A stretch of DNA of 64,000 nucleotides from Providencia rustigianii DSM 4541. Its GTDB lineage: Bacteria > Pseudomonadota > Gammaproteobacteria > Enterobacterales > Enterobacteriaceae. The translations under genes and the position numbers were made by a program. Below, piece by piece: positions 48,703 through 64,000 of the stretch. The stretch covers positions 381,409 through 445,408 of the forward strand of contig NZ_GG703817.1 of NCBI RefSeq assembly GCF_000156395.1, written 5' to 3'. The notes beneath the pieces were generated by a model. That model searched no databases and was not told the origin of the DNA. It saw nothing but the letters and a program-made list of their open reading frames with translations. Positions within the stretch are counted from its first letter, which is position 1. Each line of letters starts with the position of its first letter.

Positions 48703-48951
48703 CTAAAACATCTCCACCTGTTTTTCTCCCCTATGAGATCTTGGTAACTCATCTATTGGAATTTTAAAACCTTCAGGAAGTTCTTGCGGGATTGTTTTTG
48801 TGAGATAAATCTCTACTGAGGTTATAGTCGTAAAAGAACAACCACACAGCATATTCTGGCACTGATGATAGCTTCTACGGGTTTCACTACTCATGGATTT
48901 ACTGGTTTTGGTATAAGTCACAGCGCCACACTGGGGACAATTGAACGCCAT
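48703..48951 (-). CDS. ogr: Ogr/Delta-family late-gene activator
   Basis: This 82-residue zinc-finger activator is of the P2 Ogr/P4 Delta family, which binds upstream of late promoters and recruits host RNA polymerase. The zinc ligands fit the family: C5 and C8 (CPQC), then C31 and C36, giving CxxC-x22-C-x4-C. Between them is TYTKTSKSMSSETRRSYHQCQN, and after them the FTTITSVE strand. In P2, ogr lies just after D; here a plus-strand membrane gene separates them. It probably drives the tail operons in this cluster. Confidence 0.93.
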   Translation of the reverse strand: MAFNCPQCGAVTYTKTSKSMSSETRRSYHQCQNMLCGCSFTTITSVEIYLTKTIPQELPEGFKIPIDELPRSHRGEKQVEMF

Positions 48952-50287: not shown

Positions 50288-51350
50288 TCCTTATTTCTAA
50301 CTCCAAACTTGTGACAAAGCCGTGACCATCGATTTGATGAACAACTCGGCTAATCACCCACTGGTGACTATCAATGGTCGGTTTAAAGCCTGTCACGGTC
50401 ACTGGCATCTCAGGATAAAGGTCTGCGCGACCCTCAGCTAAGGTAATATTAAATTCTGCTACGCCCCTTTGTAATTTTGACCATTTGGCCGCGGCGGCAC
50501 GTTTAGCCGATTGCTCGTTTTTAAAGGTTTGTCGCATTACAAAAACGTTACCCTCGGCGCCCTCGATGTAATCGCCCTCTTTTTTACTCGACTTCTCTTT
50601 TTTAGGCTTTTGCTTACGTTTAAGATTGGTTTTCTTTTGTTTGCCATAGTTCAAATCTAGCCAATAGGCTTGTACGCCAGTGTACGCTTGCCGGTCAGCC
50701 AATCGAAAATAATGCCGATCGCCACTTTCCCGCATGATGGTAATCACCGATAAGGCCTTTCCGCTTTGTGTGACGCCTTGATTAGGAACGATAAATAACA
50801 AACTGCCATTTTTAATGGTGGCTATCGCGCCGAGCATTTCAGCCATGCGCGTTAAGAAACTGATATCGCTCTCATTGGTCTGGTCGGCGTGATCAATTTC
50901 AATGTGCATCAATTGTTTGCTAACGGCGGGTTTAAGGTTATAGCGCCCTGCTATCGCGCTCACCACATCAGAGACTTTGATATCGTGCCAGCTATACTCC
51001 CTTTTGACGTTGAAATCTTGCCGAAAGTCCGCACTACGGGCGGTGACGGTGATTTGGTCGGGAGGGCCTGAATGGCTAATTTCATCAACGGTATACATCC
51101 CTTTATATATCAAGGCTTCACCTTGCCAGCCCAGGGAAACTGAAATTTCAGCCCTCCGCGCTGGTAACGCAATTTTGCCGTCAGTATCATCGATAGTGAG
51201 TTCTAAGGTATCAGCTTCAAAACCGCGATTATCCGTTAATGTTAATGACATTAGCCGGTCATTGACGCTCAACAGCTGCACGCCCCCGACTGTTAAATCA
51301 AATGCAGGAACTTTGACTAAATTCCCCTCAGCCCAATCCATAAAAGCCAT
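50259..51350 (-). CDS. D: P2 gpD-like late control / tail protein
   Basis: This 363-residue protein is homologous to P2 gpD, a baseplate hub/late control protein of the gp27-like group. Near-identical motifs are NDRLMSLTLTDNRGFEADTLELTIDD, SADFRQDFNVKREYSWHDIKVSDVV, FLTRMAEMLGAIATIKNGSLLFI and KWSKLQRGVAEFNITLAEGRADLYPEMPV. A lysine-rich linker lies near residues 230-250 (KKTNLKRKQKPKKEKSSKKE). The ATG at 51350 has AGG 8 bases upstream. It lies on the minus strand with ogr, opposite to its normal operon mates FI-U, because the latter are inverted. Confidence 0.93.
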   Translation of the reverse strand: MAFMDWAEGNLVKVPAFDLTVGGVQLLSVNDRLMSLTLTDNRGFEADTLELTIDDTDGKIALPARRAEISVSLGWQGEALIYKGMYTVDEISHSGPPDQITVTARSADFRQDFNVKREYSWHDIKVSDVVSAIAGRYNLKPAVSKQLMHIEIDHADQTNESDISFLTRMAEMLGAIATIKNGSLLFIVPNQGVTQSGKALSVITIMRESGDRHYFRLADRQAYTGVQAYWLDLNYGKQKKTNLKRKQKPKKEKSSKKEGDYIEGAEGNVFVMRQTFKNEQSAKRAAAAKWSKLQRGVAEFNITLAEGRADLYPEMPVTVTGFKPTIDSHQWVISRVVHQIDGHGFVTSLELEIRIKDVGIDEG

Positions 51351-51508
51351 ATTCACCACCTAGCCAATTCAATATGCCTAGATTGGCGTCACGCGCGTAG
51401 GTGAGCAATCGCCCGTTGTTCTCTTGTGTCTATGAGAACGCTAAGTACATGATTTGTTATCAAACATCCCTGAGAATGAGAATAAATAGACATCAGGAGA
51501 TAACAGCG

Positions 51509-52675
51509 ATGGCCGTATATCATCACGGTGTTGAGGTCAATGAAACTACCGACCTTAGCACCCTTATTCGAGATATCGACACCTCAGTGATTGGGATTGT
51601 CTGCACCGCAGAAGATGCCGATCCCGAGGCGTTCCCACTCGACACCCCCGTGTTAGTTACGCGCATTAAAACGGTACTTAGTAAAGCAGGAAAAACCGGC
51701 ACGCTTTACACCACACTCAAAGCCATTGACGACCAGTGCAGCCCAAAAGTAGTCATTGTGCGCGTTGCTGAAGCGAAAGAAGGCAGCGAAAAAACTCAAG
51801 ACCAATTAGTGATTGGTGGTACCGGTGACGATGGTCGCTATACTGGCCTTTATGCCCTACTGACCGCCGAAGCCAATATCGGTGAACGCCCGCGCATATT
51901 GGCAGTACCGAAACTTGATACCAAACCGGTTGCTATGCAGCTTGCGATTTTTGCCGAGCAGATCAAAGCCTTTGCCTATATCAGCGCGAACGGCTGTAAA
52001 ACTATCGCGGAAGCCAAGAAATACCGCGAAGATTTTAATCAGCGCGAAGTGATGATCATCTACCCTGAATTTATCGCCTACAACTTGCAAAGCGGTAAAA
52101 ATGAAACCATTCCCGCCACCGCTTACGCCATTGGTTTACGTGCCAAGATTGATGCGGAACAAGGCTGGCATAAGTCGATTTCTAACGTGCCGGTTAATGG
52201 CGTTCTGGGTATTAGCGCCGATATTTATTGGACATTACAAGGTAAAGACACCGACGCCAACGATTTAAACAGTCACCAAATCACCACGTTAATTAAGCGC
52301 GATGGCTTTCGTATTTGGGGTAATCGCACCGGTGATAATGAAATTTATACTTTTGAAGTCTATACCCGCACCGCGCAAATATTGGCTGAAATGATCGCCG
52401 AGGCGCATTTTAGCTATATCGACAAAACTCTCACGCCATCATTGGTGAAAGATATTGTCGATGGAATCAACAGTAAAGGCGCGCAACTCGTCACGCAAGG
52501 CCGTTTATTGGGGTTCCAATGTTGGTATGACCCATCGGATAACCCGAAAGAAAATTTACGCGATGGCAAGGCGCACATACGCTACAAATATACCCCCGTA
52601 CCGCCACTGGAAAACCTGTCTTTAACACAGGAATTCACTGACGAATATTTCACTGTTTTCGACCAACTGGGCTAA
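51509..52675 (+). CDS. FI: Tail sheath protein (P2 FI-like)
   Basis: This 388-residue contractile tail sheath protein is homologous to P2 gpFI. It begins MAVYHHGVEVNETTDLSTLIRDIDTSVIGIVCTAEDADPEAFPLDTPVLV. It also contains the conserved KPRILAVPKLDTK-type loop (here RPRILAVPKLDTKPVA), ALGLRAKIDQEQGWHKT-type (AIGLRAKIDAEQGWHKS) and YTPVPPLENLSLTQEFTD near the end. The ATG at 51509 has AGGAG 10 bases upstream and matches the family start; ORF continuation to 51401 is not needed. It opens the inverted module. Confidence 0.96.
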   Translation: MAVYHHGVEVNETTDLSTLIRDIDTSVIGIVCTAEDADPEAFPLDTPVLVTRIKTVLSKAGKTGTLYTTLKAIDDQCSPKVVIVRVAEAKEGSEKTQDQLVIGGTGDDGRYTGLYALLTAEANIGERPRILAVPKLDTKPVAMQLAIFAEQIKAFAYISANGCKTIAEAKKYREDFNQREVMIIYPEFIAYNLQSGKNETIPATAYAIGLRAKIDAEQGWHKSISNVPVNGVLGISADIYWTLQGKDTDANDLNSHQITTLIKRDGFRIWGNRTGDNEIYTFEVYTRTAQILAEMIAEAHFSYIDKTLTPSLVKDIVDGINSKGAQLVTQGRLLGFQCWYDPSDNPKENLRDGKAHIRYKYTPVPPLENLSLTQEFTDEYFTVFDQLG

Positions 52676-52687
52676 GGAATTTCGATT

Positions 52688-53200
52688 ATGGGTATGCCTA
52701 AAAAACTCTTTTTGTTTGATCTGTTTATTGATGGTCAAACCTACCTTGGACAAGTAGAAGAAGTCACCCCGCCAAAGCTATCGCTGAAAACGGAAGATTA
52801 TCAAGGTGCCGGTATGGTGGGTTCCGTTGCGGTCATGATGGGCTTGGATTCAGGCGCGTTAGATATGGAAGCCACTATGGGCGGCTTGCTGGCTGAATTA
52901 TTGGAAAGTTGGGGCGGCACGATTGATGGTAAGCAATTTCGTTTTGCGGGCTCTTACTACAATGATTCAACTGGCGAATCCATCCCGTGTGAAATTCAAA
53001 CCCGCGGGCGCTTTACTGAGCTTGATTTTGGTAGTGCAAAAGCTGGCGATAATACACAGCATAAGTACACCATCAAAAATACCTACTGCAAGATCACCAT
53101 CAATAACAAAGAAGCCTTTGAGGTGGATTTGCTGAATATGGTGTGGAAAGTCAATGGCAAAGACATGTTAGAAAAACATCGCGCCAATATTGGCCACTAA
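52688..53200 (+). CDS. FII: Major tail tube protein (P2 FII-like)
   Basis: This 170-residue tail tube protein is homologous to P2 gpFII, which polymerises inside the sheath. It starts MGMPKKLFLFDLFIDGQTYLGQVEEVTPPKLSLKTEDYQGAGM. The conserved pieces are RFAGSYYNDSTGESIPCEIQTRGRFTELDFGSAKAGDNT and DLLNMVWKVNGKDMLEKHRANIG. It lies 12 bases after the sheath gene. Confidence 0.96.
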   Translation: MGMPKKLFLFDLFIDGQTYLGQVEEVTPPKLSLKTEDYQGAGMVGSVAVMMGLDSGALDMEATMGGLLAELLESWGGTIDGKQFRFAGSYYNDSTGESIPCEIQTRGRFTELDFGSAKAGDNTQHKYTIKNTYCKITINNKEAFEVDLLNMVWKVNGKDMLEKHRANIGH

Positions 53201-53221
53201 CTTTTAATAGGAAGATTTACT

Positions 53222-53527
53222 ATGGCTGAAGTTATTCAATTCGACGCACCTATCAAATTAGAATCAGGGCAAGAAGTGACTGAAATCACTATCACGGACA
53301 CCATGAAACAAGTTGGCGCGCTGCGTGGCTTAAAATTGTATGACGTGATGACTTCTGATGTGGATTCACTGATTAAGTTACTGCCCCGCGTCACCTCACC
53401 CCGCTTAACTGAGCGCGATGTTTCACAGCTTCCGATTCCGACATTTAATGCGTTAGCGACGGGTATTGCCAATTTTTTAGTACCGAGCTCCCCGCCAGAG
53501 ATGACAGACATCGCGGACGAGTCATAG
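53222..53527 (+). CDS. E: Tail protein gpE (P2 E-like)
   Basis: This 101-residue protein is homologous to P2 gpE, a tail assembly chaperone. It has the conserved MKQVGALRGLKLYDVMTSDVDSLIKLLPRVTSPRLTERDVSQLPIPTFNALATGI. Near its end is the slippery site T_TTT_TTA (53473-53479), at which ribosomes can slip -1 to make the longer E+E' protein. It is 21 bases after the tube gene. Confidence 0.92.
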   Translation: MAEVIQFDAPIKLESGQEVTEITITDTMKQVGALRGLKLYDVMTSDVDSLIKLLPRVTSPRLTERDVSQLPIPTFNALATGIANFLVPSSPPEMTDIADES

Positions 53528-53673
53528 AGTGCCCCAACGTTGAAACGGATGAGTTAATCGCCGATATCGCCACCGTTTTTCACTGGGCGCCGTCTGAATA
53601 TGACGCCATGACGGCCTCTGAACTCCTGTTATGGCACCAACGCGCAGCCGCCAGAACAGGAAATGAACCATGA
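53222..53673 (+). CDS. E': Tail assembly chaperone gpE+E' (frameshift product)
   Basis: A -1 shift at 53479 fuses the first 86 residues of E to a 64-residue extension ending in DELIADIATVFHWAPSEYDAMTASELLLWHQRAAARTGNEP, a clear P2 GpE' (Phage_P2_GpE) domain. The total is about 150 residues. The E' frame has no good start codon of its own, so frameshifting is the likely expression route. Its stop overlaps the tape-measure start as ATGA. By analogy with lambda G/GT, the fused form recruits the tape measure and tube protein. Confidence 0.8.
53473..53479 (+). other. Programmed -1 frameshift slippery site
   Basis: TTTTTTA is phased as T TTT TTA in the E frame. P2 E/E' uses the equivalent T_TTT_TTG. 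Slippage keeps the downstream frame open to the stop at 53671-53673. Confidence 0.8.
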
Positions 53674-56600
53674 GTAATCGCAATTTAAATATCAAAGTTT
53701 CGTTAAGTGCTGCGAATAAGCTATCTTCCCCTGTTAGTGCTGCACAGCGCAGCGCGGCAGGGTTAGCGACACAAATCAAAGCCACACAAAACACTATCCG
53801 CAACCTACAAAGCCAATCGAAAACATTCGAGCGACTTTCTAATTCCGTCAATAAAAACTCACAGGCTTACGAGACAGCTAAAAATAAAGTCAAAGCGTTA
53901 CGCGACCAGTACCCGCCACTAACCCAGCAAACTGAAGAACAAAAAAGAGCTTTAGCTGCTGCTCGTTTGGAACGTGATCGCTACGGCCGCACGCTTGACA
54001 AAGAGAAACAAAAACTTAATAACGTGACAGCGTCACTCTATCGTCATGGCGTATCGGCACGTCAAAGCGGTGATGCCACAGCACAAGTGACGCGACGAAC
54101 TGAAATTTATAATCGCCAGTTAGATGAGCAACGCCGACGGTTATCTGCCGTGACTCGAGCGCAAGGTCAATATGCCAAGTCAAAAGAGTTACGTAATAAG
54201 CTAGCGACGGGGGGTGCAATCGCGACCGCGGGCGGTGCCGGTGCGCTTTATGCAGGCTCGCGAATTACGGCTCCTGGTCGTGATTTTGATGAGGGTATGT
54301 CAACGGTTCAAGCCCTCACCCGATTAGATAAGAATTCTCCTCAGCTGGCGATGTTACGCCAACAAGCCCGAGAACTGGGCGCCAGTACCGCTTATACCGC
54401 CACTGATGTTGCCGCCGGTCAGAAGTTTTTGGCCATGGCCGGTTTTACACCTGATGCAATTAAGGCGGCATTGGGTGGCGTATTGAACATGGGTTTAGCC
54501 GGCGATATGGATCTTGGTGAAGCCTCCGATATTGGTTCAAACGTCCTGACTCAATTTCAATTGAAAGCCGGTGAAATGAACCGCGTCTCTGATGTACTCA
54601 CCGCCACGTTTACCCGTAGTAATACCGATTTACGCCAACTCGGTGAAACCATGACCTATGCAGGCCCTATTGCCGCACAACTTGGCGTCAGTCTTGAAAG
54701 TATGGCAGCGATGGCAGGAACCATGGCTGATAACGGCATTCGAGGCAGTATGGCGGGTACATCGCTCCGCGCCGGTTTATCACGCATGGTTGCTCCTGTT
54801 GGCAAAGGTCAAGCCGCCCTCGACAAGCTAGGGATTAGCGTTAAAGATGCCAGCGGAAAACTGCGCGATGCCGACGCGATTTTAAAAGATGTTGGCAAGA
54901 GTATGCGTAAGTTTGACCAAGCCAGCCAGATTCGCATGAAAAAAGATATTTTCGGCGAAGAAGCGATGGTTGGTATGGGCGCAGTAATTGATTCGGTGAT
55001 GAATGGCCGTTATGACGCGCTGAAAACGGCCAATATGGGCGCCGAGGGCGAAGCTGATAAAAACGCCAAGGTTAAGATTGATAACTTAAAAGGCGACCTG
55101 AAACAGTTGCAATCCGCGTGGGAAGATCTCGGTATTGAGATCCAAGAAAATGTTGATTCCCCTTTGCGGCGTGTGACTCAATCATTGACTGGCTTTATTG
55201 GTCAAGTTGGCCAATGGATGAAAGCACACCCTAAAATGACGCAAGCCCTTGCCGTCGGTGGGATTGCCATTGCAACATTAGTAACTGTACTCGGTACCTT
55301 AGCCCTTGCTGTAGCAGCAGTTATTGTTCCGTTTGCTGCGATGCGATTAAGTGTGTTTATGCTCACCGGTGGCCGTGGTCTCGGTGGACTTATTCCTAAA
55401 TTAGGCTCATTTTCGTTTGGCTTAAAAAGTTTAATTCCTTCCATTGGTAAAACAGGTCGCAGCGTGCGTGATTGGTTGCCTATCTTTAGCAATGCTAAAG
55501 GGGCAGTTAGCCAGCTTTCATCTGGCGTGATGGCACTTGGTCGAACCGGATTTACGAGTATTTTAGCCGGCGCGGCCTCTACCGGTGGCGCCCTTTCTTT
55601 GTTATTCACCAATCCATTAGGGGCATTAACGGCTCTTGGCTCTGGAATTCAAGGACTTGCCACTGTTGGGTTTGGTAGCTTAATGACCGCCGGTAGTAAC
55701 GCGATTGGTGTTATTGGGGGCGGTTTTTCCTTGTTATTGAGTCCTGTTGGGTTATTTGTCGCAGCCATTGTGGCGGCTGGCGTGTTGATTTATCAATACT
55801 GGGAACCGATTAAAGCCTTTTTCAGTGGATTTTGGGATGGTTTCACATCTGCCCTTGCCCCGATGGGTGCGGCATTCAGCGCCACCTTTACCCCATTCGC
55901 CCCGATATTCGATGGCATTTCAAATGCCGTCAGCAAGGTCTGGAACTGGTTTAAAGAATTGCTTTCACCGGTTCAACTGTCTACTGAAGAATTGAAATCC
56001 TGTACTGAAGCCGGTCAGGTATTTGGTGACGTGGTGGGTAAAGCCATCAGTGCCCTATTCTGGCCAATTCAGCAAGTCGCCAAAGGCTTAGGCTGGATAT
56101 TAGAAAAGCTCGGCGTTATTCCTGATGCAGCCAGTGCCGCTGCCGATGCAGCAAGAGCCATGGGTGTTGACCCGAATGAAAAAGACCCATTTAAGGTACT
56201 CAATTCGGTTTCATCCTATGCAGGGAAAACCGCCAAAGCCAATGAGCAAGCCAAAAAACAGCAAGCCGAGGCAACCAGTAAAATCACCAGTAGCGTGATG
56301 GTTGCGGGTAAACAGTTGGAAAAAAGCAGCGAGTTACAGCAAAAAGCCAATGAAGTTAACCCGTTAGAGAATGCAGAGAAATACGGTACTTTGGTTTATG
56401 ACGGCGCAGAGAAAAAGAGCAAAACCAAAGGCAGTAAATCCGCGTTAAGTGATGCGGCCGAAAGTGTCGATAGAAATAAACTCGGCGATATTGTGTTTAA
56501 AAACTTTCCTGCGGTGACGGCGGTTGATGGGTTGTATCGAGAGCCACGTATTTCCGCTCAAAAGCAGCCGTCATTGCTATCACAACTCAATGATTCCCTT

Positions 56601-56834
56601 ATCAATACGTTTGCTCCTATTCAGCCAAAATTGAGCGCAATACCTGTGGCGGTATCCCCGACCCGACCAGAACGCCAAGTGATGCAACCTGAATACAATA
56701 CCTTTGAATTACATTTCCACGGGGTTGATGTGAATAACGAGAAGAAGCTAGCCGACGTTGTGAAGCAACAATTAACCGCACTATTACGCGAACGCGATAG
56801 CCGCCGCCGTTCCAGCTTAAAGGATCAGGATTAA
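53670..56834 (+). CDS. T: Tail tape-measure protein (P2 T-like)
   Basis: This 1054-residue tape-measure protein sets tail length. It begins with a coiled-coil region (residues 1-160: AANKLSSPVSAAQRSAAGLATQIKATQNTIRN). The TP901 core follows (about 200-420), with FDEGMSTVQALTRLD, LGASTAYTATDVAAGQKFLAMAGF and TLRQLGETMTYAGPIAAQLGVS-type segments. Then comes a hydrophobic transmembrane-like region (about 525-560 and 640-700). It is homologous to P2 gpT, with a start overlapping the E' stop. Confidence 0.95.
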   Translation: MSNRNLNIKVSLSAANKLSSPVSAAQRSAAGLATQIKATQNTIRNLQSQSKTFERLSNSVNKNSQAYETAKNKVKALRDQYPPLTQQTEEQKRALAAARLERDRYGRTLDKEKQKLNNVTASLYRHGVSARQSGDATAQVTRRTEIYNRQLDEQRRRLSAVTRAQGQYAKSKELRNKLATGGAIATAGGAGALYAGSRITAPGRDFDEGMSTVQALTRLDKNSPQLAMLRQQARELGASTAYTATDVAAGQKFLAMAGFTPDAIKAALGGVLNMGLAGDMDLGEASDIGSNVLTQFQLKAGEMNRVSDVLTATFTRSNTDLRQLGETMTYAGPIAAQLGVSLESMAAMAGTMADNGIRGSMAGTSLRAGLSRMVAPVGKGQAALDKLGISVKDASGKLRDADAILKDVGKSMRKFDQASQIRMKKDIFGEEAMVGMGAVIDSVMNGRYDALKTANMGAEGEADKNAKVKIDNLKGDLKQLQSAWEDLGIEIQENVDSPLRRVTQSLTGFIGQVGQWMKAHPKMTQALAVGGIAIATLVTVLGTLALAVAAVIVPFAAMRLSVFMLTGGRGLGGLIPKLGSFSFGLKSLIPSIGKTGRSVRDWLPIFSNAKGAVSQLSSGVMALGRTGFTSILAGAASTGGALSLLFTNPLGALTALGSGIQGLATVGFGSLMTAGSNAIGVIGGGFSLLLSPVGLFVAAIVAAGVLIYQYWEPIKAFFSGFWDGFTSALAPMGAAFSATFTPFAPIFDGISNAVSKVWNWFKELLSPVQLSTEELKSCTEAGQVFGDVVGKAISALFWPIQQVAKGLGWILEKLGVIPDAASAAADAARAMGVDPNEKDPFKVLNSVSSYAGKTAKANEQAKKQQAEATSKITSSVMVAGKQLEKSSELQQKANEVNPLENAEKYGTLVYDGAEKKSKTKGSKSALSDAAESVDRNKLGDIVFKNFPAVTAVDGLYREPRISAQKQPSLLSQLNDSLINTFAPIQPKLSAIPVAVSPTRPERQVMQPEYNTFELHFHGVDVNNEKKLADVVKQQLTALLRERDSRRRSSLKDQD

Positions 56835-56838
56835 TATT

Positions 56839-57270
56839 ATGATGATGATTTATGGTATGTTTGTGTTTGAACTACGCACCGCCCCTTATCAGACTTTTAA
56901 CCATTCACTCGACTGGCGCCACGTTAAAAATGACCGTGTTGGCCGCAGTGCCAAATGGCAGTATGTCGGCGCCGGTGAAGATAAAATCACGTTGTCCGGC
57001 ACGCTTTACCCCGAAGTTACCGGCGGTGATGTGTCGCTGGAATTACTGAAAACTTCAGCCTATGTGGCTAAGCCACTGCCTTTGATTGAGGGCACAGGAA
57101 CGATTTACGGTATGTATGTGATCACTAATCTGGTTATGGATAGGACAGAGTTTTTTACCGACGGTAAGGCGAAGAAAATAGATTTTACGCTGTCGTTAAG
57201 TCGAGTTAGTGAGGATGTTAGGGAGAGACTGGCTGGGGTGGATGTTGGGGAATTGATGGGGCTGTTTTGA
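56839..57270 (+). CDS. U: Tail protein gpU (P2 U-like)
   Basis: This 143-residue protein is homologous to P2 gpU, a tail terminator/baseplate protein. It starts MMMIYGMFVFELRTAPYQTFNHSLDWRH and has the conserved AGEDKITLSGTLYPEVTGG, IEGTGTIYGMYVITNLVMDRTEFFTDGKAKKIDFTLSLSRV. The C-terminal tail of P2 U (about 15 more residues) is missing. It closes the inverted FI-U module and converges on the RelA/SpoT-type gene. Confidence 0.93.
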   Translation: MMMIYGMFVFELRTAPYQTFNHSLDWRHVKNDRVGRSAKWQYVGAGEDKITLSGTLYPEVTGGDVSLELLKTSAYVAKPLPLIEGTGTIYGMYVITNLVMDRTEFFTDGKAKKIDFTLSLSRVSEDVRERLAGVDVGELMGLF

Positions 57271-57320
57271 TAATATATCTATATTAAATAGGTCAAGTTT
57301 CCATAAATATATCTGTCAAA

Positions 57321-57355
57321 ATTACAGCCTTTCATTGAATTCGAAAGGCTGTAAT
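57321..57355. terminator. Long hairpin between U and the RelA/SpoT-domain gene
   Basis: A 13-bp perfect stem, ATTACAGCCTTTC / GAAAGGCTGTAAT, with a 9-base loop lies between two convergent genes; a short U-run follows on the minus strand. Confidence 0.7.
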
Positions 57356-57380
57356 TAAGGTTTGCGTACATATCAAAGAA

Positions 57381-58682
57381 TCAATTTAAAGCCAATGACT
57401 TAGACTCATAAGCTTTAAAATGAAATTTATAATTTCCTTCTTCTATGCGCCCTAATTTTTTATTAAATATATGAACGTTAAAGTTGTGAGGTTGCCCTAC
57501 ACCTATTTTAATCGTTAGATCCGATATATCAGTGTTAGGACAAGTTGTTTCAGTTGTTATAACTTCAACGATAGGGATAGTCTCAAAGCGTGGGTTAAAA
57601 TGCCCAGTAAAGGTAGCGAATTTATTACTTCTAATAACTTCAATTTCAATATCGCCTTCATAGCAATCTTTAGTATTTGTTTTGTCAACTTGCCCTAAAA
57701 CCACTACAACAGGATTTTTTTCATTACGATTGAGACGAATATTCTCACTAGTTTGTGATTTTAGCTCTTCTTTTAAACTTTCTATCTCAGAGCGTTGTAC
57801 ATCTATGAGTTTTTCATATTGTTCCTGTACTTCATCAATATTTTTCTCATGGGTGGACAGTTTTTTAATATTATCTTGTAATTTTTCTTTCTCTTCTAAG
57901 AATTGCTTTTCTTTTTTGCTTCTTTCTTCTTCTAGTTCATTATTTTTTTTTATTAATGCAATAAGCTCATTGACATAACTACCCATTTCATCAGCACTAC
58001 CTGCCAAACGGTTAAATATTGTTAAATAGCTCATTAAATTTTCATCTTCTGAATAATCAGGGTATCTAACTTTATGGTCAATCTCACTCCAACCTTCTTC
58101 AAAAATTGTCCTTGTTTGAACTTCACAATAAATTTGTACCGAATGTATATTTGTAGCTGGGACTAAATAATGTATCGAACGATAGTTATAAAAATGTACT
58201 TTCTGCTCACAGTCAAGGTGATGAGAATATATGTCCATGACATCCCCCTCCCTGTGATATATAATTACAGGCTCATCTTCCTTAATAACCCATCTAGATA
58301 GAATATGATTATGTACTTCTTCCCAGTCACTTTTGAACAAATAAATTGCTCTAACTCCAATTAAATCAGTGATTATTGCTTTATAATTCCCAACATTGAT
58401 GCTTTTATATTTTTCATTTAACTGTACTTCATTAAGCTTTCTAACTATCTTTTTTATCACATGAGATACACTTTTTATTCGCCAGCGAACTGAATGTACT
58501 GCGTTGCAACGTTGTATCTTCTTAGCTATGTATTCAGCTTCATCTAGTAAGGTCAGTTCATTTTCTTTATAATCTTCTGCAATTTCTTTCAATACATCTA
58601 TAGCAATACCACTTCTTTCAACACTTTCAGCACTTACACCCATATCTTGTAAAAACTGCGAATTATTATTTTCTATACTCAT
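57381..58682 (-). CDS. RelA/SpoT-domain protein with coiled coil and C-terminal domain (cargo gene)
   Basis: This protein of 433 residues has three parts. A RelA/SpoT nucleotide pyrophosphokinase domain (about 60-210) keeps the key residues: RIK (68-70), DLIGVR (106-111), YRSIH (167-171) and EVQTRT (187-192), followed by the EEGWSEIDHKVRYP helix. Next is a long coiled coil (about 245-316). The last 110 residues form a strand-rich domain (VVVVLGQVDK...HFNVHIFNKKL). No HD hydrolase or TGS/ACT domains are present. It should make an alarmone or pyrophosphorylate a target such as tRNA. The ATG at 58682 is a judgment; a GTG at 58733 would add 17 residues and neither has a strong ribosome site. It is AT-rich, at the P2 Z/fun cargo position. 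Confidence 0.85.
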   Translation of the reverse strand: MSIENNNSQFLQDMGVSAESVERSGIAIDVLKEIAEDYKENELTLLDEAEYIAKKIQRCNAVHSVRWRIKSVSHVIKKIVRKLNEVQLNEKYKSINVGNYKAIITDLIGVRAIYLFKSDWEEVHNHILSRWVIKEDEPVIIYHREGDVMDIYSHHLDCEQKVHFYNYRSIHYLVPATNIHSVQIYCEVQTRTIFEEGWSEIDHKVRYPDYSEDENLMSYLTIFNRLAGSADEMGSYVNELIALIKKNNELEEERSKKEKQFLEEKEKLQDNIKKLSTHEKNIDEVQEQYEKLIDVQRSEIESLKEELKSQTSENIRLNRNEKNPVVVVLGQVDKTNTKDCYEGDIEIEVIRSNKFATFTGHFNPRFETIPIVEVITTETTCPNTDISDLTIKIGVGQPHNFNVHIFNKKLGRIEEGNYKFHFKAYESKSLALN

Positions 58683-58955
58683 AATTTTTGACCACAAAAG
58701 TTGGTGACTTATTATCAATTTATTATCTTTCACTTAAATTATTTAATGCTATTTGTTACTTAATTATCACTATAATTAGCTCTATCAAGTCTCACCCAAA
58801 AAATCACTATCATCTAATTTAAAAAATAAATCAACATTATTAATATTCATATTTCAATACTAAGATATTCATCTAAAACATGCTATTTATTTATAATTGA
58901 TACATACGGTAAAGGATTCTACACAATAAATACATTAATTATCTTAATGCCTGTC

Positions 58956-59459
58956 TCACTTTGGGCTAACTGGCCAATTAATATCCAACCCCAACTCAAC
59001 ATCCACCCTATTCACCTGCACTCGATACTCTTTCCACGCCCTTAACTGCTCCCGTTCTTCATCTGTCGCAATACCAAGCTCCACCGCATCTTGCAAAGGG
59101 GTAATAGCATCAGAAATTTCACGTAGTAATGTTTGTTTTTTTGTTTTATTTTCTGAAACTACGCGTTCTTTTGGGCTTTGATATACATAAATTTCACCAT
59201 TTTTAACTCGGTGAAAATCAGGGTTTATAATGGTTTTCTCATCTAGCTCCAAAACATAATATCCTTCGGGATAAAGCATAGATATATCATTGGAAATAGA
59301 CGCAATTATCCCTTCATCATCATAAAGTATTTTGACGGTGTTTTGACTAAACATTGATTGTTGCTGATACCAGTCGCCGTCAATATTTTTCAGATAAACA
59401 ATATTGGAATAATGTGAAGTATCAGGAAGATAACGCTCAAATTTTTTAGTTAGTGACAT
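58956..59459 (-). CDS. tfa: Tail fibre assembly protein
   Basis: This 167-residue tail fibre assembly (Caudo_TAP) chaperone is the counterpart of P2 G. The C-terminal half has the family pattern KQTLLREISDAITPLQDAVELGIATDEEREQLRAWKEYRVQVNRVDVELGLDINWPVSPK. The N-terminal part (RYLPDTSHYSNIVYLKNIDGDWY) is variable, as expected for fibre-specific contacts. Its start overlaps the fibre gene end by 14 bases. Confidence 0.92.
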   Translation of the reverse strand: MSLTKKFERYLPDTSHYSNIVYLKNIDGDWYQQQSMFSQNTVKILYDDEGIIASISNDISMLYPEGYYVLELDEKTIINPDFHRVKNGEIYVYQSPKERVVSENKTKKQTLLREISDAITPLQDAVELGIATDEEREQLRAWKEYRVQVNRVDVELGLDINWPVSPK

Positions 59460-60867
59460 TTAACCATGCTCCATTAACAAGTATTTGTAGTGTGGCAACT
59501 CGAGCTTTATTGATATAGGTGTCTTGAGATCCTGCGTTGACGCGATATAAACCAACAATAAATTGGTGCATTGGAAATGAGGTCCATGCCGATATATTGA
59601 CAGGAACTTCGGTATAAGCCGATATTCTGAAACTTTTATTACCTAGTGTGCCTCCAATTTTACTATCAACCTCAGCTTTCGTATAAGCTCCCACATCCCC
59701 TGCATTCAGCGAGATATCCGCACTTAAAGCCTTGTTGTTAACTTTGCGTCCACTTGGCACGCGACCATTGGCATTATTATTGGCATTGGTCGCTGCCGTA
59801 TTCGCGCTATTTGCAGTTGTTTGTGCATCGGTACCGGCTTTTTTAGCATCCGCAACTTTGGTGTCAGTTTCTACCTTGGTATATGCTCCGACATCACCCG
59901 CAGTCAGTGAAATATCTGCACTTAACGCTTTGTTATTAACCTTTCGCCCGCTGGGAACCCGTCCATTGGCATTATTATTCGCATTGGTAGCGGCTGTATT
60001 GGCACTATTTGCGGACGTCTGTGCATCTGTGCCCGCTTTTTTCGCGTCCGCGACTTTAGTATCCGTTTCTACCTTGGTATATGCGCCGACATCACCCGCA
60101 GTCAGTGAAATATCGGTACTTAACGCTTTGTTATTAACCTTTCGCCCGCTGGGAACTCTCCCATTCGCATTATTATTCGCATTGGTAGCGGCGGTATTGG
60201 CACTATTCGCGGTCGTCTGCGCATCGGTGCCGGCTTTTTTCGCGTCCGCGACTTTAGTATCCGTTTCTGCCTTGGTGTACGCTCCGACATCACCAGCATT
60301 CAGAGTGATATCAACATTTAGCTGTTTATTATTCACTTTACGAGTGATTGGAACGGCACCAACGTCACTGGCCGTCAATTCAGTGATTCTTTTATCCAAT
60401 ACCTGAATAGCGTCATCCACGTATTGGCGTGTTGCTAATACAACAGTCGGATCAATCTTCAGTGTTACCGACTCAGTATGGCTAACAATCAGAATCATGC
60501 GGATGGTTTGCGTGCGACCAGAACCCTCAGCTAACAGTGGTTTATAGGTCTCAGGACAATTAGCCACCGCCACCAATAAACCCGATTTATCAAACAAACC
60601 GATTTCGCGTATCCACCAACCGCCCTCATTTTCGGGGATCACTTGTTCAGCAATAACTTGGTTTGTATTTATCGAGTCAATAAACAACGTGTTGATGGCT
60701 GCACGGCGTTTTTCATTGACTAATTTAGTCTGTTTAGTATCCGGTGCGGGCAATATGCCGCCGCCGTCACCCACAGCCATGTGTGTTAACTCAATTTTTG
60801 TGCCGAGAGCTGTCGCCTCTGCGAGCACTTTTTCACCGTAAGTGGTGAGCAATGCAAAATATTTCAT
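59446..60867 (-). CDS. H: Tail fibre protein (P2 H-like) with tandem repeats
   Basis: This 473-residue tail fibre protein, shorter than P2 gpH, has the conserved P2-type N-terminus (MKYFALLTTYGEKVLAEATALGTKIELTHMAVGDGGG...GGWWIREIGLFDKSG). This attaches the fibre to the baseplate. It continues with collagen-like shaft repeats and a variable tip (FPMHQFIVGLYRVNAGSQDTY). Residues 192-389 are three 66-residue tandem repeats. The C-terminal receptor tip is unlike P2, so its host range differs. It overlaps the I gene and tfa. Confidence 0.92.
   Translation of the reverse strand: MKYFALLTTYGEKVLAEATALGTKIELTHMAVGDGGGILPAPDTKQTKLVNEKRRAAINTLFIDSINTNQVIAEQVIPENEGGWWIREIGLFDKSGLLVAVANCPETYKPLLAEGSGRTQTIRMILIVSHTESVTLKIDPTVVLATRQYVDDAIQVLDKRITELTASDVGAVPITRKVNNKQLNVDITLNAGDVGAYTKAETDTKVADAKKAGTDAQTTANSANTAATNANNNANGRVPSGRKVNNKALSTDISLTAGDVGAYTKVETDTKVADAKKAGTDAQTSANSANTAATNANNNANGRVPSGRKVNNKALSADISLTAGDVGAYTKVETDTKVADAKKAGTDAQTTANSANTAATNANNNANGRVPSGRKVNNKALSADISLNAGDVGAYTKAEVDSKIGGTLGNKSFRISAYTEVPVNISAWTSFPMHQFIVGLYRVNAGSQDTYINKARVATLQILVNGAWLNVTN
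59701..60294 (-). repeat. Three 198-bp tandem repeats in the tail fibre gene
   Basis: Three in-frame 66-residue units (GDVGAYTK...NNANGRVPSGRKVNNKALS...DISL) occupy residues 192-389, with a partial fourth starting at residue 390. The copies differ by only a few codons, so recombination could change copy number and shaft length. Confidence 0.9.
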
Positions 60868-61475
60868 TGGAGAGTGACCCTCATTTCATCGATAACGTGG
60901 ATTGCCGCCCCTGTGGAGATAATCCCACCGGTACTGATCACATCTGGCGTATATGGGTAAACCGTAAGTTCATCACCGCCATAACTGGTCGCAGCGCAAT
61001 AAATACTTCCCTTAGTTTCAAGTTGAATAGTCATTCCAATAAGATGGCGACTTGCTGGCTTAGCATCAAAAATTAATGCTTCTAACTCCCGATACATTTC
61101 TTCAGTAATACCCGTTTCAAGTACGCCAATATCAAGGCGAAATGTGCCGGCAGTTTCGTTAGTTTTCCACCACTCAATCACCCGAATCAAATAACCGAGA
61201 GGCTCTACCACACGACGCAATGCTCCGATGGTGCCCTTGTGTTTATGAATAAACATCGCGGCCTTGATAGCATCGCGTTTGGCTTTTTCTGACCAGTTTT
61301 TATCCCACCGATCAACACTGAACGCCCAGGCTAAATACGGCAGTAAATGTACTGGACATAAATCAGGGTTCCATAGAATGCGAATGGGGATTGGCACACG
61401 TTCTATTTCCGCTAAAGCCTCAGCGGCGGCAAGCTCTAGTGCTGATGAACCGACAGGCAGTAATCGGCTATTCAT
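60864..61475 (-). CDS. I: Baseplate protein gpI (P2 I-like)
   Basis: This 203-residue baseplate protein of the P2 gpI family helps join fibres to the baseplate. Conserved pieces are MNSRLLPVGSSALELAAAEALAEIERVPIPIRILWNPDLCPVHLLPYLAWAFSVDRWDKNW and AMFIHKHKGTIGALRRVVEPLGYLIRVIEWW. It overlaps J by 8 bases and the fibre gene by 4. Confidence 0.94.
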   Translation of the reverse strand: MNSRLLPVGSSALELAAAEALAEIERVPIPIRILWNPDLCPVHLLPYLAWAFSVDRWDKNWSEKAKRDAIKAAMFIHKHKGTIGALRRVVEPLGYLIRVIEWWKTNETAGTFRLDIGVLETGITEEMYRELEALIFDAKPASRHLIGMTIQLETKGSIYCAATSYGGDELTVYPYTPDVISTGGIISTGAAIHVIDEMRVTLQ

Positions 61476-62379
61476 CTGAGCCCCCTAGCGCCACATTAAT
61501 ATGGGTACAAAAACTGGCCTGTGTTTTATCTAATTTGATATCTGTCGAGGGCTTTTTCAGTTCCACACGTTGCACGCCTTGAACATGTAAAGCCGCATAA
61601 ATAGCACTGAGCACAATGTCACGACCTAACCGGTGTTGCTGTGTCGCATAGCGTTTCACTTGTTCCTCTGCCGTCACCATAATCGGCTCATATTCAGGCG
61701 AGGGATAACAATAAATCACCGCATCGATTTCATAGTTAACGATGGTTGCCGATTGAACGGTGACGCGGTCAGCGACAGGGCGTACATCCTCATCGTTTAA
61801 AGCCAGATCCACTTTTTCGATTAAATCAGCCGGTGCAGAACCATTCCCCTCACGGGATAACACCGTCACAGTGACATGAGCCGGTAACGGGCTGATCACC
61901 GAGGCATCAGATACCCGACCATCAGCACTGCGAGCATGATACTCATAGCTGCCTATAGGACCTGCAACACTAAGGGCTTCAAAGGCGGCAGGAATACGCA
62001 AGCGTAAGTTAGAATCTGACTCATACACCGGCGCAATCGGTGGAATAGCGCTCTCGTCACCGGCGGATAACATCAACCGCTTAACGTTATTATTGGCGGC
62101 GAGTTGATCGAGATCCGCCCCTGTAGCAAAAGCGACCATTGAAGCGCGCGCTGCTTCATTCACACGCTGGCGCCAGATTAATTCACGGTAACTATTTTCT
62201 TGTAATAACTTGGTCAATGGCTCGGATTCTAGTTCCAAGGTACGGGCGACAGCTTCCCGCTGTTCTTCAGGCATAGCAGCAATTAATGCTGTTTTTCGCG
62301 CGGTAAATATCACCTCAAAATCTAATAGTTCGACCACGTCCGGTGCGGGTAATAAACTTAAATCAATACTGGCTGCCAT
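61468..62379 (-). CDS. J: Baseplate assembly protein gpJ (P2 J-like)
   Basis: This 303-residue baseplate wedge protein is of the P2 gpJ family (gp6-like). It starts IDLSLLPAPDVVELLDFEVIFTARK. It has the conserved LTKLLQENSYRELIWRQRVNEAARASMVAFATGADLDQLAANNNVKRL and GSYEYHARSADGRVSDASVISPLPAHVTVTVLSREGNG segments. Its start is 4 bases after W. Confidence 0.94.
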   Translation of the reverse strand: MAASIDLSLLPAPDVVELLDFEVIFTARKTALIAAMPEEQREAVARTLELESEPLTKLLQENSYRELIWRQRVNEAARASMVAFATGADLDQLAANNNVKRLMLSAGDESAIPPIAPVYESDSNLRLRIPAAFEALSVAGPIGSYEYHARSADGRVSDASVISPLPAHVTVTVLSREGNGSAPADLIEKVDLALNDEDVRPVADRVTVQSATIVNYEIDAVIYCYPSPEYEPIMVTAEEQVKRYATQQHRLGRDIVLSAIYAALHVQGVQRVELKKPSTDIKLDKTQASFCTHINVALGGSDE

Positions 62380-62383
62380 ACTG

Positions 62384-62725
62384 TTACCTCACAGGAATAG
62401 AAATCGAAACTGGCTCACCCGTTGGCATAATCACACCCGATAAACTGACCGCCATTTCACCAATATCTGAACGAATATAATCAATGGTTTGTAACCTGAC
62501 CCTTGGCTCCCACTGCATCAGCGCCATATAACAAGCGCTCATGATTTTAAGGCGCAGCGCAGAGTTTTGTGGCTGGTCAATCAAGTCATACAACAGTGAG
62601 CCGTATTGCCGGCGCATTACCCGCGAACCGATTGGCGTTCGCAAAATATCCGCGATACTTTGGCGAATATGCTCACTGTCAGTCAGGTTGCTCCCTGTTT
62701 TCCCATTCATGCCGCAATATTTCAT
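62384..62725 (-). CDS. W: Baseplate protein gpW (P2 W-like, gp25-type)
   Basis: This 113-residue baseplate wedge protein is of the gp25/gpW type. It has the conserved HIRQSIADILRTPIGSRVMRRQYGSLLYDLIDQPQN and MACYMALMQWEPRVRLQTIDYI-type region (here MSACYMALMQWEPRVRLQ). Its start overlaps the V stop as ATGA; a second ATG 15 bases on (62710) is possible. Confidence 0.94.
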   Translation of the reverse strand: MKYCGMNGKTGSNLTDSEHIRQSIADILRTPIGSRVMRRQYGSLLYDLIDQPQNSALRLKIMSACYMALMQWEPRVRLQTIDYIRSDIGEMAVSLSGVIMPTGEPVSISIPVR

Positions 62726-63351
62726 TTCGGCCCATCCGTACGACTGCCGCCACGTTCAACACCGCCATGATTATGATCATCAATAACAACCCCATTTGAA
62801 GAAAACGTTCCATTTTTATGGGTAATATTTCCAGTCATTTCACCGCCCTTTTCCACTTTCAACGTGGCTGTGGTGAGGTTATTAGTACAAATGACGTTCG
62901 GTGTATCAAATTTGATTTCAACGGAGGCTTTGCAAATCACTTTTTTAGTTGTGACCGTAATTTCGTCGCTGGCTTCAATCACCGCTTTTTTAATGCCCAC
63001 CGCCTTTAATGTTCCGTTTTCGGGCTCATATTCGATAACCGCACCATCAGAAAAGGTATGATTCAATGCATTAGCTGAATGTGACGGCGCGGGATTATCG
63101 TTGCTGTATAACGAACCCAAAACAAAACCGGTTGTTAACTCGCCACCAATAGCGCCAATTAACACTTGTTCTCCCACCGTTGGCGCCCAATGGCTGCGTG
63201 ACTCACCGGCACGCTGAACTAACCATCTAATCCAATCCGTGACCAATTCACCCGATTGAACGCGGCAACAATCATTGTCTAAGTCCACTTCAGTGACCAC
63301 ACCTTGACGCAAAAGATTACTGAGTAACCGATATAGCTCTTGCGCATTCAT
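62722..63351 (-). CDS. V: Baseplate spike protein gpV (P2 V-like)
   Basis: This 209-residue central spike protein pierces the target membrane on contraction. It has an N-terminal OB-fold region (LLRQGVVTEVDLDNDCCRVQSGELVTDWIRWLVQRAGESRSHWAPTVGEQV), a triple beta-helix (KVICKASVEIKFDTPNVICTNNLTTATLKVEKGGE) and a C-terminal apex with HNHGG. The HxH there would coordinate the iron ion found at the P2 spike tip. Both ends overlap neighbouring genes (ATGA). Confidence 0.95.
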   Translation of the reverse strand: MNAQELYRLLSNLLRQGVVTEVDLDNDCCRVQSGELVTDWIRWLVQRAGESRSHWAPTVGEQVLIGAIGGELTTGFVLGSLYSNDNPAPSHSANALNHTFSDGAVIEYEPENGTLKAVGIKKAVIEASDEITVTTKKVICKASVEIKFDTPNVICTNNLTTATLKVEKGGEMTGNITHKNGTFSSNGVVIDDHNHGGVERGGSRTDGPK

Positions 63352-63986
63352 AGTTGCCCCACTAAATCGAGATAGATTATTTCCAACAAGCCTAGGCGCT
63401 CATGCTCTGAAAGCCCCAACAACTCCCGTTTAGGATAACGCGCCCGCGCCAACTGATTCACGGCACCCTCAAGCCCATATTGATGCTCTCTGGCAATGGC
63501 AGCGGCTTTACCTTGAAAACCCACAACCGCACTGTTTTGGGTGCTACGCGCCTGTAAAAAATGCACAGCACGTAATCGCCGAAACATAGGAACATTACGC
63601 TTAGTGGTTCGTTTTACTGATGAGAAATTAATATCTAAAAAGCGTAAGATATCTTGGCGATAAAACGTTCTTACTGCGCCTCTATCCTCATCAAATCCGG
63701 TGATGGTTTTACCGCGTCGACCTTTGGAACCTTGCCAATTTCGTAGCGTACGAACATCACCACGATGGATAAAACGGATCTGCTGCTGGGCGCGTAATAC
63801 TTTACGTTTACGGGGTTCATACGCTGTGCCGTCCGCATTTTTTTGGCTACGAATACGTTTTTGTTGAGCCGTTCGAATAGCCTTGGCTAATTTTGTTGTA
63901 AGTCGTTTTCGATATGCATTCGACGTCGTAGAAAGTAACCTTTTTAATTCATCATCTAATTGCGTCACCAAGGAATTATCATGCAT
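63348..63986 (-). CDS. S: Tail completion / virion morphogenesis protein gpS (P2 S-like)
   Basis: This 212-residue protein of the P2 gpS (phage virion morphogenesis) family is basic throughout. Features are LTTKLAKAIRTAQQKRIRSQKNADGTAYEPRKRK and AREHQYGLEGAVNQ...YPKRELLGLSEHERLGLLEII. Its stop overlaps the V start as ATGA. It is the last complete gene before the right edge; the expected preceding gene R lies outside. AGGA 10 bases upstream supports the start. Confidence 0.93.
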   Translation of the reverse strand: MHDNSLVTQLDDELKRLLSTTSNAYRKRLTTKLAKAIRTAQQKRIRSQKNADGTAYEPRKRKVLRAQQQIRFIHRGDVRTLRNWQGSKGRRGKTITGFDEDRGAVRTFYRQDILRFLDINFSSVKRTTKRNVPMFRRLRAVHFLQARSTQNSAVVGFQGKAAAIAREHQYGLEGAVNQLARARYPKRELLGLSEHERLGLLEIIYLDLVGQL

Positions 63987-64000
63987 ACGTCAATATTCCT

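What the first reader, a model, noticed from the sequence alone, without database searches (positions are those of the whole stretch)
57381..58682. RelA/SpoT-domain cargo gene with coiled coil and extra C-terminal domain, at the Z/fun position
All key synthetase motifs are present (RIK, DLIGVR, YRSIH, EVQTRT), so it is probably an active nucleotide or tRNA pyrophosphokinase. The gene is AT-rich, sits in the phage at a known cargo hotspot, and has no adjacent small antitoxin ORF. The C-terminal domain, joined by a coiled coil, could be a built-in regulator or phage sensor as in CapRel-type fused toxins. This architecture looks uncommon to me.
Basis: partly seen in the sequence, partly recalled or inferred. 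Interest (0 to 1): 0.75.

Follow-up and report, generated by a model that had tools for sequence, protein, structure and literature searches.

The report
Prophage alarmone-synthetase-like enzyme with sensor-like tail
A dormant virus in this bacterium carries an enzyme related to bacterial stress-signal makers, joined by a long rod to a small domain predicted to fold like the tip of a virus tail fibre; it may be an alarm against competing viruses, and its end part seems to be swapped between relatives like a replaceable sensor.

Summary
The ORF is real (57381-58682, minus strand, 433 aa): an intact RelA/SpoT synthetase core, a long predicted coil and a seven-stranded C-terminal beta domain. It lies in a P2-like prophage between gpU and gpG. 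In sister prophages of the genus that slot holds Shedu SduA, Abi_2 with a PDC-S39 candidate, other genes, or nothing. The core belongs to a widespread phage-borne family (it matches phrog_2211, function unknown; 50 viral-contig loci, one identical to the window). Catalytic residues are invariant in 48 aligned proteins, and core dN/dS is 0.07-0.08 in the three of six pairs where it could be measured, while the C-terminal tails vary strongly (up to 41 clusters among 48). In this member the tail is a beta sandwich whose predicted fold best matches phage/pyocin fibre tips and H-type lectins (Z 7.5-9; no sequence link). By sequence it is homologous to the C-terminal domain of PIN_8 proteins and of membrane-anchored coil proteins. 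No partner antitoxin was found. Best reading: a single-gene, CapRel-like anti-phage effector with an exchangeable sensor, but not a CapRel member, since its core is nearest RelP/RelQ. Substrate, trigger and defence are untested. New variant of a known kind.

The parts
57381..58682 (-). RelA/SpoT-coil-beta-domain gene, 433 aa (P0001)
   Evidence: open frame; PF04607 E 9.2e-14; phrog_2211 E 3.7e-67 over residues 1-313
58065..58682 (-). synthetase core, residues 1-206; active-site motifs at 58437-58496 (H63-K82), 58350-58367 (DLIGVR), 58170-58184 (YRSIH), 58107-58124 (EVQTRT)
   Evidence: invariant residues in 48 proteins; RelQ 5dec Z 17.0, 178 residues, 2.3 A
57732..58043 (-). long helical coil, residues 214-317
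   Evidence: AlphaFold2 helices 214-277 and 282-317; heptad test p 0.01
57408..57707 (-). C-terminal beta sandwich, residues 326-425, fibre-tip/H-type-lectin-like predicted fold, shared by sequence with PIN_8 and membrane-anchored proteins
   Evidence: pLDDT 91.9 as a lone domain; fold matches; sequence homology
57271..58955 (.). cargo slot between gpU and gpG; holds other genes or nothing in sister prophages
56839..57270 (+). gpU (tail), flank of the slot
   Evidence: PF06995 E 5.2e-39
58956..59459 (-). gpG-like tail fibre assembly protein, other flank of the slot
   Evidence: PF02413 E 3.6e-29
59446..60867 (-). gpH-like tail fibre
   Evidence: PF12571 E 2.2e-62; no sequence similarity to P0001 beyond chance

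Best explanation
It is a prophage-borne, single-gene anti-phage effector that works like a fused toxin-sensor. The N-terminal core is a pyrophosphotransferase of the small-alarmone-synthetase fold. The long coil makes it an oligomer, and the C-terminal domain holds the enzyme off until it meets a ligand made during infection by a competing phage. On binding, the enzyme pyrophosphorylates a nucleotide (making an alarmone) or the tRNA CCA end, growth stops, and the competing phage fails. The C-terminal part is the exchangeable sensor. [quoted passage not shown] Inferred: activity, oligomerisation, autoinhibition, trigger, defence.
For: (1) Motif residues invariant in 48 proteins; core dN/dS 0.080, 0.078 and 0.072 in three of six pairs tested, the other three (one with the window's gene) having saturated dS. 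(2) Tails vary while cores stay: L034/L035 84% core and 28% tail, L070/L074 81% and 21%, shuffled tails 23.6 +/- 7.8; 48 tails make 41 clusters at E 1e-3, an upper bound as some tails are short. In CapRel too the C-terminal region is the least conserved and was swapped in a chimera to test phage range (PMC9712102, passages; the outcome was cut off there, that it sets specificity is recalled). (3) The slot holds Abi_2 with PDC-S39 (E 4.4e-115) in L113, and Shedu SduA (E 9.8e-136) in the partly syntenic L118. (4) No constant partner among 49 loci (ORFs of 50 aa or more within 4 kb); the commonest neighbour family is near 11. (5) The C-terminal domain is also joined to PIN_8 domains and to membrane-anchored coils. 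(6) Its Rel-type carriers form one clade (support 0.986) inside a clade (0.999) whose other members have unrelated tails, as one tail swap would give.
Against: No defence test exists. PADLOC gives nothing below E 0.0047, and those weak matches lie in the coil; a PIN_8 carrier of the domain has no PADLOC match either (L086). The core is closer to housekeeping RelP/RelQ than to toxSAS, so it might be a mild alarmone synthetase. Tail variation could be relaxed constraint or short low-complexity ends: the closest pairs keep their tails (core 92-95%, tails 51-86%; window against L032/L033 75-76% core and 49-50% tail), and tail dN/dS is 0.14-0.32, not above 1. Some sister slots hold genes of no known defence family (L116) or mainly a NOV_C protein (L112, L114). 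The model gives no view of an autoinhibited state.
Confidence: 0.5

Rival explanations
1. It is a lysogenic-fitness gene: a small alarmone synthetase that adjusts host growth or prophage stability under stress. The coil and beta domain serve oligomerisation or binding of a host metabolite.
For: Core closest to RelP/RelQ, known (p)ppGpp synthetases; a tail-less Fusobacterium homologue of about 259 aa matches residues 9-240 at 40.7%, and fpRel is the SAS listed for Fusobacteria (PMC3153485, passages); RelP and RelQ are oligomers (recalled).
Against: Strongly variable tails, and a slot that takes defence genes in some sister prophages.
Confidence: 0.25
2. It is the toxin half of a toxin-antitoxin pair whose antitoxin lies elsewhere in the prophage or genome.
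For: Many toxSAS have separate antitoxins (PMC11782079, PMC8832971, passages).
Against: No neighbour family is constant among 49 loci; no ORF over 44 aa in the gaps beside the gene.
Confidence: 0.08
3. It is a lytic-phase gene that shuts down host synthesis or excludes others after induction, expressed with the late genes.
For: It sits inside the late tail region and points the same way as gpG-gpV.
Against: AT-rich and slot-specific; none of the other same-genus genomes among the 147 searched has a match; homologues lie in varied phage contexts.
Confidence: 0.1
4. The C-terminal beta domain is only a trimerisation cap on the coil; recognition lies elsewhere or nowhere.
For: Closest predicted folds are fibre tips and lectins (their trimeric or oligomeric state recalled). 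The conserved G, P and F-N-x-H positions could be structural.
Against: Most relatives have unrelated tails instead, so a cap is not generally needed. It is compatible with the best explanation.
Confidence: 0.2

Closest known systems
CapRel-SJ46 (fused toxSAS defence protein)
   Same: Single gene, RelA/SpoT-fold enzyme at the N end, least conserved part at the C end, prophage-linked (PMC9712102, passages).
   Different: Core nearer RelP/RelQ (Z 16-17) than CapRel (Z 11.6); long coil and all-beta C-terminal domain in place of the pseudo-zinc-finger; tRNA activity not shown.
Small alarmone synthetases RelP/RelQ (and fpRel)
   Same: Fold, motifs and best sequence-profile matches; Fusobacterium relative probably fpRel (inferred from PMC3153485).
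   Different: Phage-borne, with coil and exchangeable tail; RelP and RelQ chains in the PDB are about 210-240 residues.
phrog_2211 (unknown function)
   Same: Residues 1-313 match profile positions 1-310 of 395, E 3.7e-67.
   Different: The C-terminal beta domain lies outside the match.
H-type lectins and phage/pyocin fibre tips (LKA1 gp49, R1 pyocin fibre, Helix agglutinins, discoidins, SLL-2)
   Same: Predicted fold of the C-terminal domain, Z 7.7-9.0 over 83-91 residues.
   Different: No sequence link (Pfam, PDB profile); part of an intracellular enzyme.
Tha and Tai prophage defence (tail-directed)
   Same: Prophage defence aimed at or triggered by tail proteins or tail assembly of other phages (abstract texts).
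   Different: Different proteins and mechanisms; named only as precedent for a tail-linked trigger.

Membership tests
RelA/SpoT synthetase-fold (SAS) proteins | RelA_SpoT domain above the curated cut-off | tested here: met
   PF04607 52.1 bits, cut-off 27
RelA/SpoT synthetase-fold (SAS) proteins | Catalytic motifs intact and conserved | tested here: met
   17 named residues invariant in 48 proteins; which residues are catalytic is recalled
RelA/SpoT synthetase-fold (SAS) proteins | (p)ppGpp or (pp)pApp synthesis | not testable with these tools
   needs enzyme assay
CapRel fused toxSAS | Core closest to CapRel among known synthetases | tested here: not met
   RelQ 17.0, RelP 16.1, CapRel 11.6; none of 41 PDB hits up to E 10 is named CapRel, FaRel2 or Tas1
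CapRel fused toxSAS | C-terminal pseudo-zinc-finger antitoxin domain with YXXY motif | tested here: not met
   C-terminal region is a predicted seven-stranded beta sandwich; no YXXY in residues 318-433 by reading
CapRel fused toxSAS | tRNA CCA-end pyrophosphorylation and phage-triggered activation | not testable with these tools
   needs experiments
phrog_2211 | profile match over most of the profile | tested here: met
   E 3.7e-67, profile positions 1-310 of 395; only P0001 was scanned, not the other family members
H-type lectin domain | Fold | tested here: inconclusive
   Z 7.7-9.0 to H-type lectins and fibre tips, unrelated folds 5.5-6.4; Foldseek does not separate them from CBM3 modules; no sequence support
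H-type lectin domain | Carbohydrate binding | not testable with these tools
   needs experiments
P2 Z/fun cargo slot | Variable cargo between the fibre-assembly gene and the FI operon | tested here: inconclusive
   Cargo slot beside gpG is shown, but the other flank is gpU because the FI-U block is reversed; P2 order recalled

The most novel reading that the evidence does not exclude
The coil plus beta tip is a mimic of a phage tail fibre inside the cell. It senses infection by meeting, or co-assembling with, newly made fibre or tailspike chains of the invading phage, and this switches on the synthetase. The same tip on PIN_8 proteins and membrane-anchored coils would then be a general, unnamed bacterial sensor module for phage fibre tips or their chaperones.
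Probability: 0.12. Interest if true: 0.88.

Novelty: new variant of a known kind. Interest (0 to 1): 0.62.

Why it matters
If right, CapRel is not a single case: a second, widespread group of phage-borne RelA/SpoT enzymes, with a core nearer RelP/RelQ, would pair one constant catalytic core with many exchangeable tails. That gives a ready set of natural variants for finding what phage proteins such tails read. The beta domain, which no Pfam model recognised here, links these enzymes to PIN_8 proteins and membrane proteins and gives a handle on several uncharacterised, possibly defensive genes at once.

Tried and rejected
Housekeeping synthetase: rejected as a simple reading, because no characterised enzyme matched the whole protein (PDB sequence hits cover the core or the coil only), though the core is nearest RelP/RelQ.

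Assembly error behind the reversed FI-U block: rejected; L112-L116 show the same order and the window has no N.

C-terminal domain copied from the prophage's own fibre: no sequence similarity.

RNA antitoxin: no Rfam family at gathering threshold in 48-64 kb. Promoter and terminator scan of 57200-59000 gave nothing above shuffles (9 promoter-like sites against 10.0 expected, 0 terminators against 0.5).

Searches with nothing or little: genome contigs with the whole protein, the C-terminal domain by tblastn in plasmids and phages, A5 in viral contigs, megablast of 50200-63990 in phages. The whole protein by tblastn: 1 of 50,697 phage records and 5 of 72,556 plasmid records, all over the core only. 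The weak G382 match has four stops in frame and was left out. E. coli: L030's gene by distant blastn hit 1 of 5426 genomes, 72% over 143 bases on a plasmid; no protein-level search was made there.

Rows dropped before counts: of 50 viral loci, L031 is 100% identical to the window's protein and was set aside; 49 proteins were extracted with starts picked by script (48 end in a stop, L062 runs off the contig); L062 and L079 (same tail and coordinates as L078) were left out of the 48-row alignment A3, which includes the window's protein. In the tree one of the two 259-aa rows (Ilyobacter, Fusobacterium) was lost through a duplicate row name, and the tip labelled Ilyobacter is probably the Fusobacterium one. 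Of six pairs, three have saturated core dS. L090 is the same protein as G866, and L098 the same locus as G085. Fold searches list ranked matches only; families not listed are not excluded.

Print: the listings (capped) showed no title or abstract start on this protein, on phrog_2211 or on this beta domain; the main text of PMC9122126 has no 'RelA', 'ppGpp' or 'alarmone', and that of PMC9519451 no 'ppGpp', 'toxSAS' or 'synthetase'. Jimmy 2020 was not held. This is not an exhaustive search.

Full report
What was checked. The ORF at 57381-58682 on the minus strand encodes 433 aa. RelA_SpoT is the only Pfam family above its cut-off. The protein matches phrog_2211, a family of unknown function, over residues 1-313. 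No NCBIfam model reaches its cut-off, and PADLOC gives only weak coil matches, best E 0.0047.

Setting. The gene lies in a P2-like prophage: an Ogr-like zinc-finger ORF at 48703-48951 (named by reading), gpD at 50259-51359, sheath, tube, gpE-like, tape measure and gpU on the plus strand, the gene, then gpG, gpH and gpI on the minus strand. Beyond the window the same contig continues with genes that read as capsid, terminase, portal and replication genes and, at L110 17758-18774, an integrase; these were named by reading only. GC is 0.30-0.35 over the gene and 0.46-0.51 in the prophage on both sides.

The slot. gpD homologues occur in 15 of 24 genomes of the genus, the window's own included. 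Seven regions around the closest ones were fetched. Five (L112-L116) match the window over gpD, over FI-U and over part of gpH to gpV; L118 matches in part and L117 only at gpD and the ORF before it. Between gpU and gpG: L112 and L114 hold a NOV_C protein plus a 162-aa protein (no Pfam or PADLOC match for L112's); L113 an Abi_2 protein and a PDC-S39 candidate; L118 Shedu SduA and a NOV_C gene that reads as frame-broken; L116 two proteins without informative families; L115 nothing, gpU ending about 30 bases from gpG. So the slot is a cargo site that takes defence genes in some sisters, and the gene studied here is one choice among several.

The family. A scan of viral contigs with an eight-sequence alignment gave 50 loci, one identical to the window's protein. 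Of the 49 others, 48 genes end in a stop and one runs off its contig. In the 48-row alignment 37 columns are invariant, among them the motif residues listed above. Core dN/dS is 0.080, 0.078 and 0.072 in three pairs; in the other three of six, one with the window's gene, dS is saturated. Tails give 0.136, 0.321 and 0.288 in the same three pairs. Heptad periodicity in the 80 residues beyond the core reaches p < 0.05 in 39 of 48. Beyond the coil many tails lose similarity even between close cores: L070/L074 81% core and 21% tail, L034/L035 84% and 28%, shuffled 23.6 +/- 7.8. The closest pairs keep theirs (core 92-95%, tail 51-86%), and over the 23 pairs with 70% core identity or more the mean tail identity is 30.6%. 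The 48 tails form 41 clusters at E 1e-3, an upper bound because some tails are as short as 16 residues. No neighbour family (ORFs of 50 aa or more within 4 kb) accompanies the gene: the commonest, DNA C5 methyltransferase-like by reading, is near 11 of 49 loci; gpD-, tape-measure- and gpU-like genes (by reading) are near 9, 8 and 8. In whole genomes the family is sparse: 8 of 147 relatives match at E 1e-3, of which the own genome and 3 others at E below 1e-59; 11 of 369 of the class, of which the own genome and 2 others at E below 1e-66.

The C-terminal domain. Full-length AlphaFold2 model: mean pLDDT 85.7, pTM 0.59. Domain alone, 16 sequences: pLDDT 91.9, pTM 0.83. VIA-align ranks LKA1 tailspike gp49 (Z 9.0, 90 residues, 2.6 A), R1 pyocin fibre (8.6), phi297 tailspike (8.3), discoidin II (8.2), Helix agglutinins (7.7-8.0), SLL-2 (7.7) and AP22 gp54 tailspike (7.5) first; CBM3, AP2 mu, a herpesvirus tegument protein and others follow at 5.5-6.4, mixed with more fibre proteins. 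Foldseek is weaker: no PDB match at E 1e-3 or below, R1 pyocin fibre first at 2e-3, and CBM3 modules ahead of the lectins. BFVD lists four matches at E 1e-3 or below: one named H-type lectin domain, one tail fibre, one lyase superfamily, one uncharacterised. The tool warns that Z near 8 can be a common arrangement. There is no sequence link to lectins or fibre tips. So the fold assignment is likely but function is not carried over.

Homology of the domain. The 115-aa domain alone found a PIN_8 protein in G118 at E 6e-5 (PIN_8 by Pfam). Proteins of the same kind occur in a Sphingomonas plasmid (annotated PIN domain protein), G866 and G921. A profile from the four Rel-type domains scored three of the four PIN-type domains above all 2000 shuffles; the fourth (Sphingomonas) fell below one shuffle. 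The reverse profile scored all four Rel-type domains at E 2e-11 or better, best shuffle 0.15; hhalign gave 97% probability. A genome-contig scan gave 14 loci: eight full-length proteins of the PIN type (L086-L092 and L094; L086 and L092 tested by Pfam, the others assigned by reading; L090 equals G866), one fragment (L099), four coil proteins of 280-291 aa with a signal-like start and one membrane stretch by reading (L093, L095-L097), and the broken Rel-type copy in Citrobacter (L098, equal to G085). The membrane type is 34-38% identical to the window's domain, the PIN type 24-27%. By the positive-inside rule (inference) the domain of the membrane type faces the cytosol. Some of these genes lie near HNH, DUF4145, PIN_12, PLD-like (by reading) or methylase genes, which hints at defence but was not tested against a background; the one PIN_8 carrier scanned has no PADLOC match.

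One gain. In a FastTree of cores, the window protein, L032, L033 and the Citrobacter fragment form a clade (0.986) within a clade with L034/L035 (0.999), whose tails are unrelated. The domain was most likely acquired once, on an existing core plus coil.

Relation to known systems. CapRel has a C-terminal pseudo-zinc-finger that restrains the toxSYNTH core through a YXXY motif, and its C-terminal region is its least conserved part (PMC9712102 and PMC11782079, passages); that this region binds phage proteins and sets specificity is in those passages only in part and otherwise recalled. The present protein shares that layout but fails two CapRel features: its core is nearer RelP/RelQ and its C-terminal domain is not the pseudo-zinc-finger. 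Fusobacterium has a tail-less relative; Atkinson 2011 lists fpRel as the SAS of Fusobacteria (PMC3153485, passages), so the core is probably fpRel-like (inference). Whether the product is an alarmone or a modified tRNA cannot be told from sequence here.

Verdict. The interpretation as a fused effector with a built-in sensor is the best-supported one but untested (0.5). The novel element is the exchangeable-tail family and the beta domain shared by three architectures.

Noticed in passing
window 51401-57270 against 50259-51359 and 58956-63351: FI-FII-E-T-U block is on the strand opposite to gpD and gpG-gpV, unlike P2 (recalled); the same order is seen in five sister prophages of the genus, so it is a lineage trait.
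   Followed up: partly
window 49037-50287: Very AT-rich multi-pass membrane protein (by reading) of 416 aa between the Ogr-like ORF and gpD, no family above noise in Pfam, PHROGs, PADLOC or NCBIfam; similar-looking 434-455 aa proteins in L112, L113 and L118, slot empty in L114-L117. A second cargo slot.
   Followed up: partly
L110 9293-11417: Two ORFs of 452 and 254 aa between a portal-like gene and a large replication-like gene (by reading): perhaps a third cargo slot of the same prophage.
   Followed up: no
L093 4452-5294, L095 4407-5282, L096 1264-2112, L097 4404-5252: Family of 280-291 aa proteins with signal-like N end, one membrane stretch, a coil (all by reading) and the same beta domain; in L097 next to a PIN_12 gene, in L093 and L095 near DUF4145 genes.
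   Followed up: partly
L009 583-1953 (G118) and L085 541-2007 (G921): PIN-type proteins with the beta domain carry a further C-terminal piece: IF2_N (E 4.2e-7) in one, a zinc-ribbon-like stretch (by reading) in the other.
   Followed up: no
L118 11661-14000: Sister prophage slot with a Shedu SduA gene beside a NOV_C gene that reads as frame-broken.
   Followed up: no
L011 7832-8555 (PQ189348.1): A Vibrio phage of the Vinavirales carries a relative of the core; the annotated CDS there is much shorter than the match, so the gene may be broken or misannotated.
   Followed up: no
A9 members against PHROGs: Two of 16 members of the beta-domain alignment match phrog_9788 (unknown function), best E 1.4e-5; a possible further phage architecture.
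   Followed up: no
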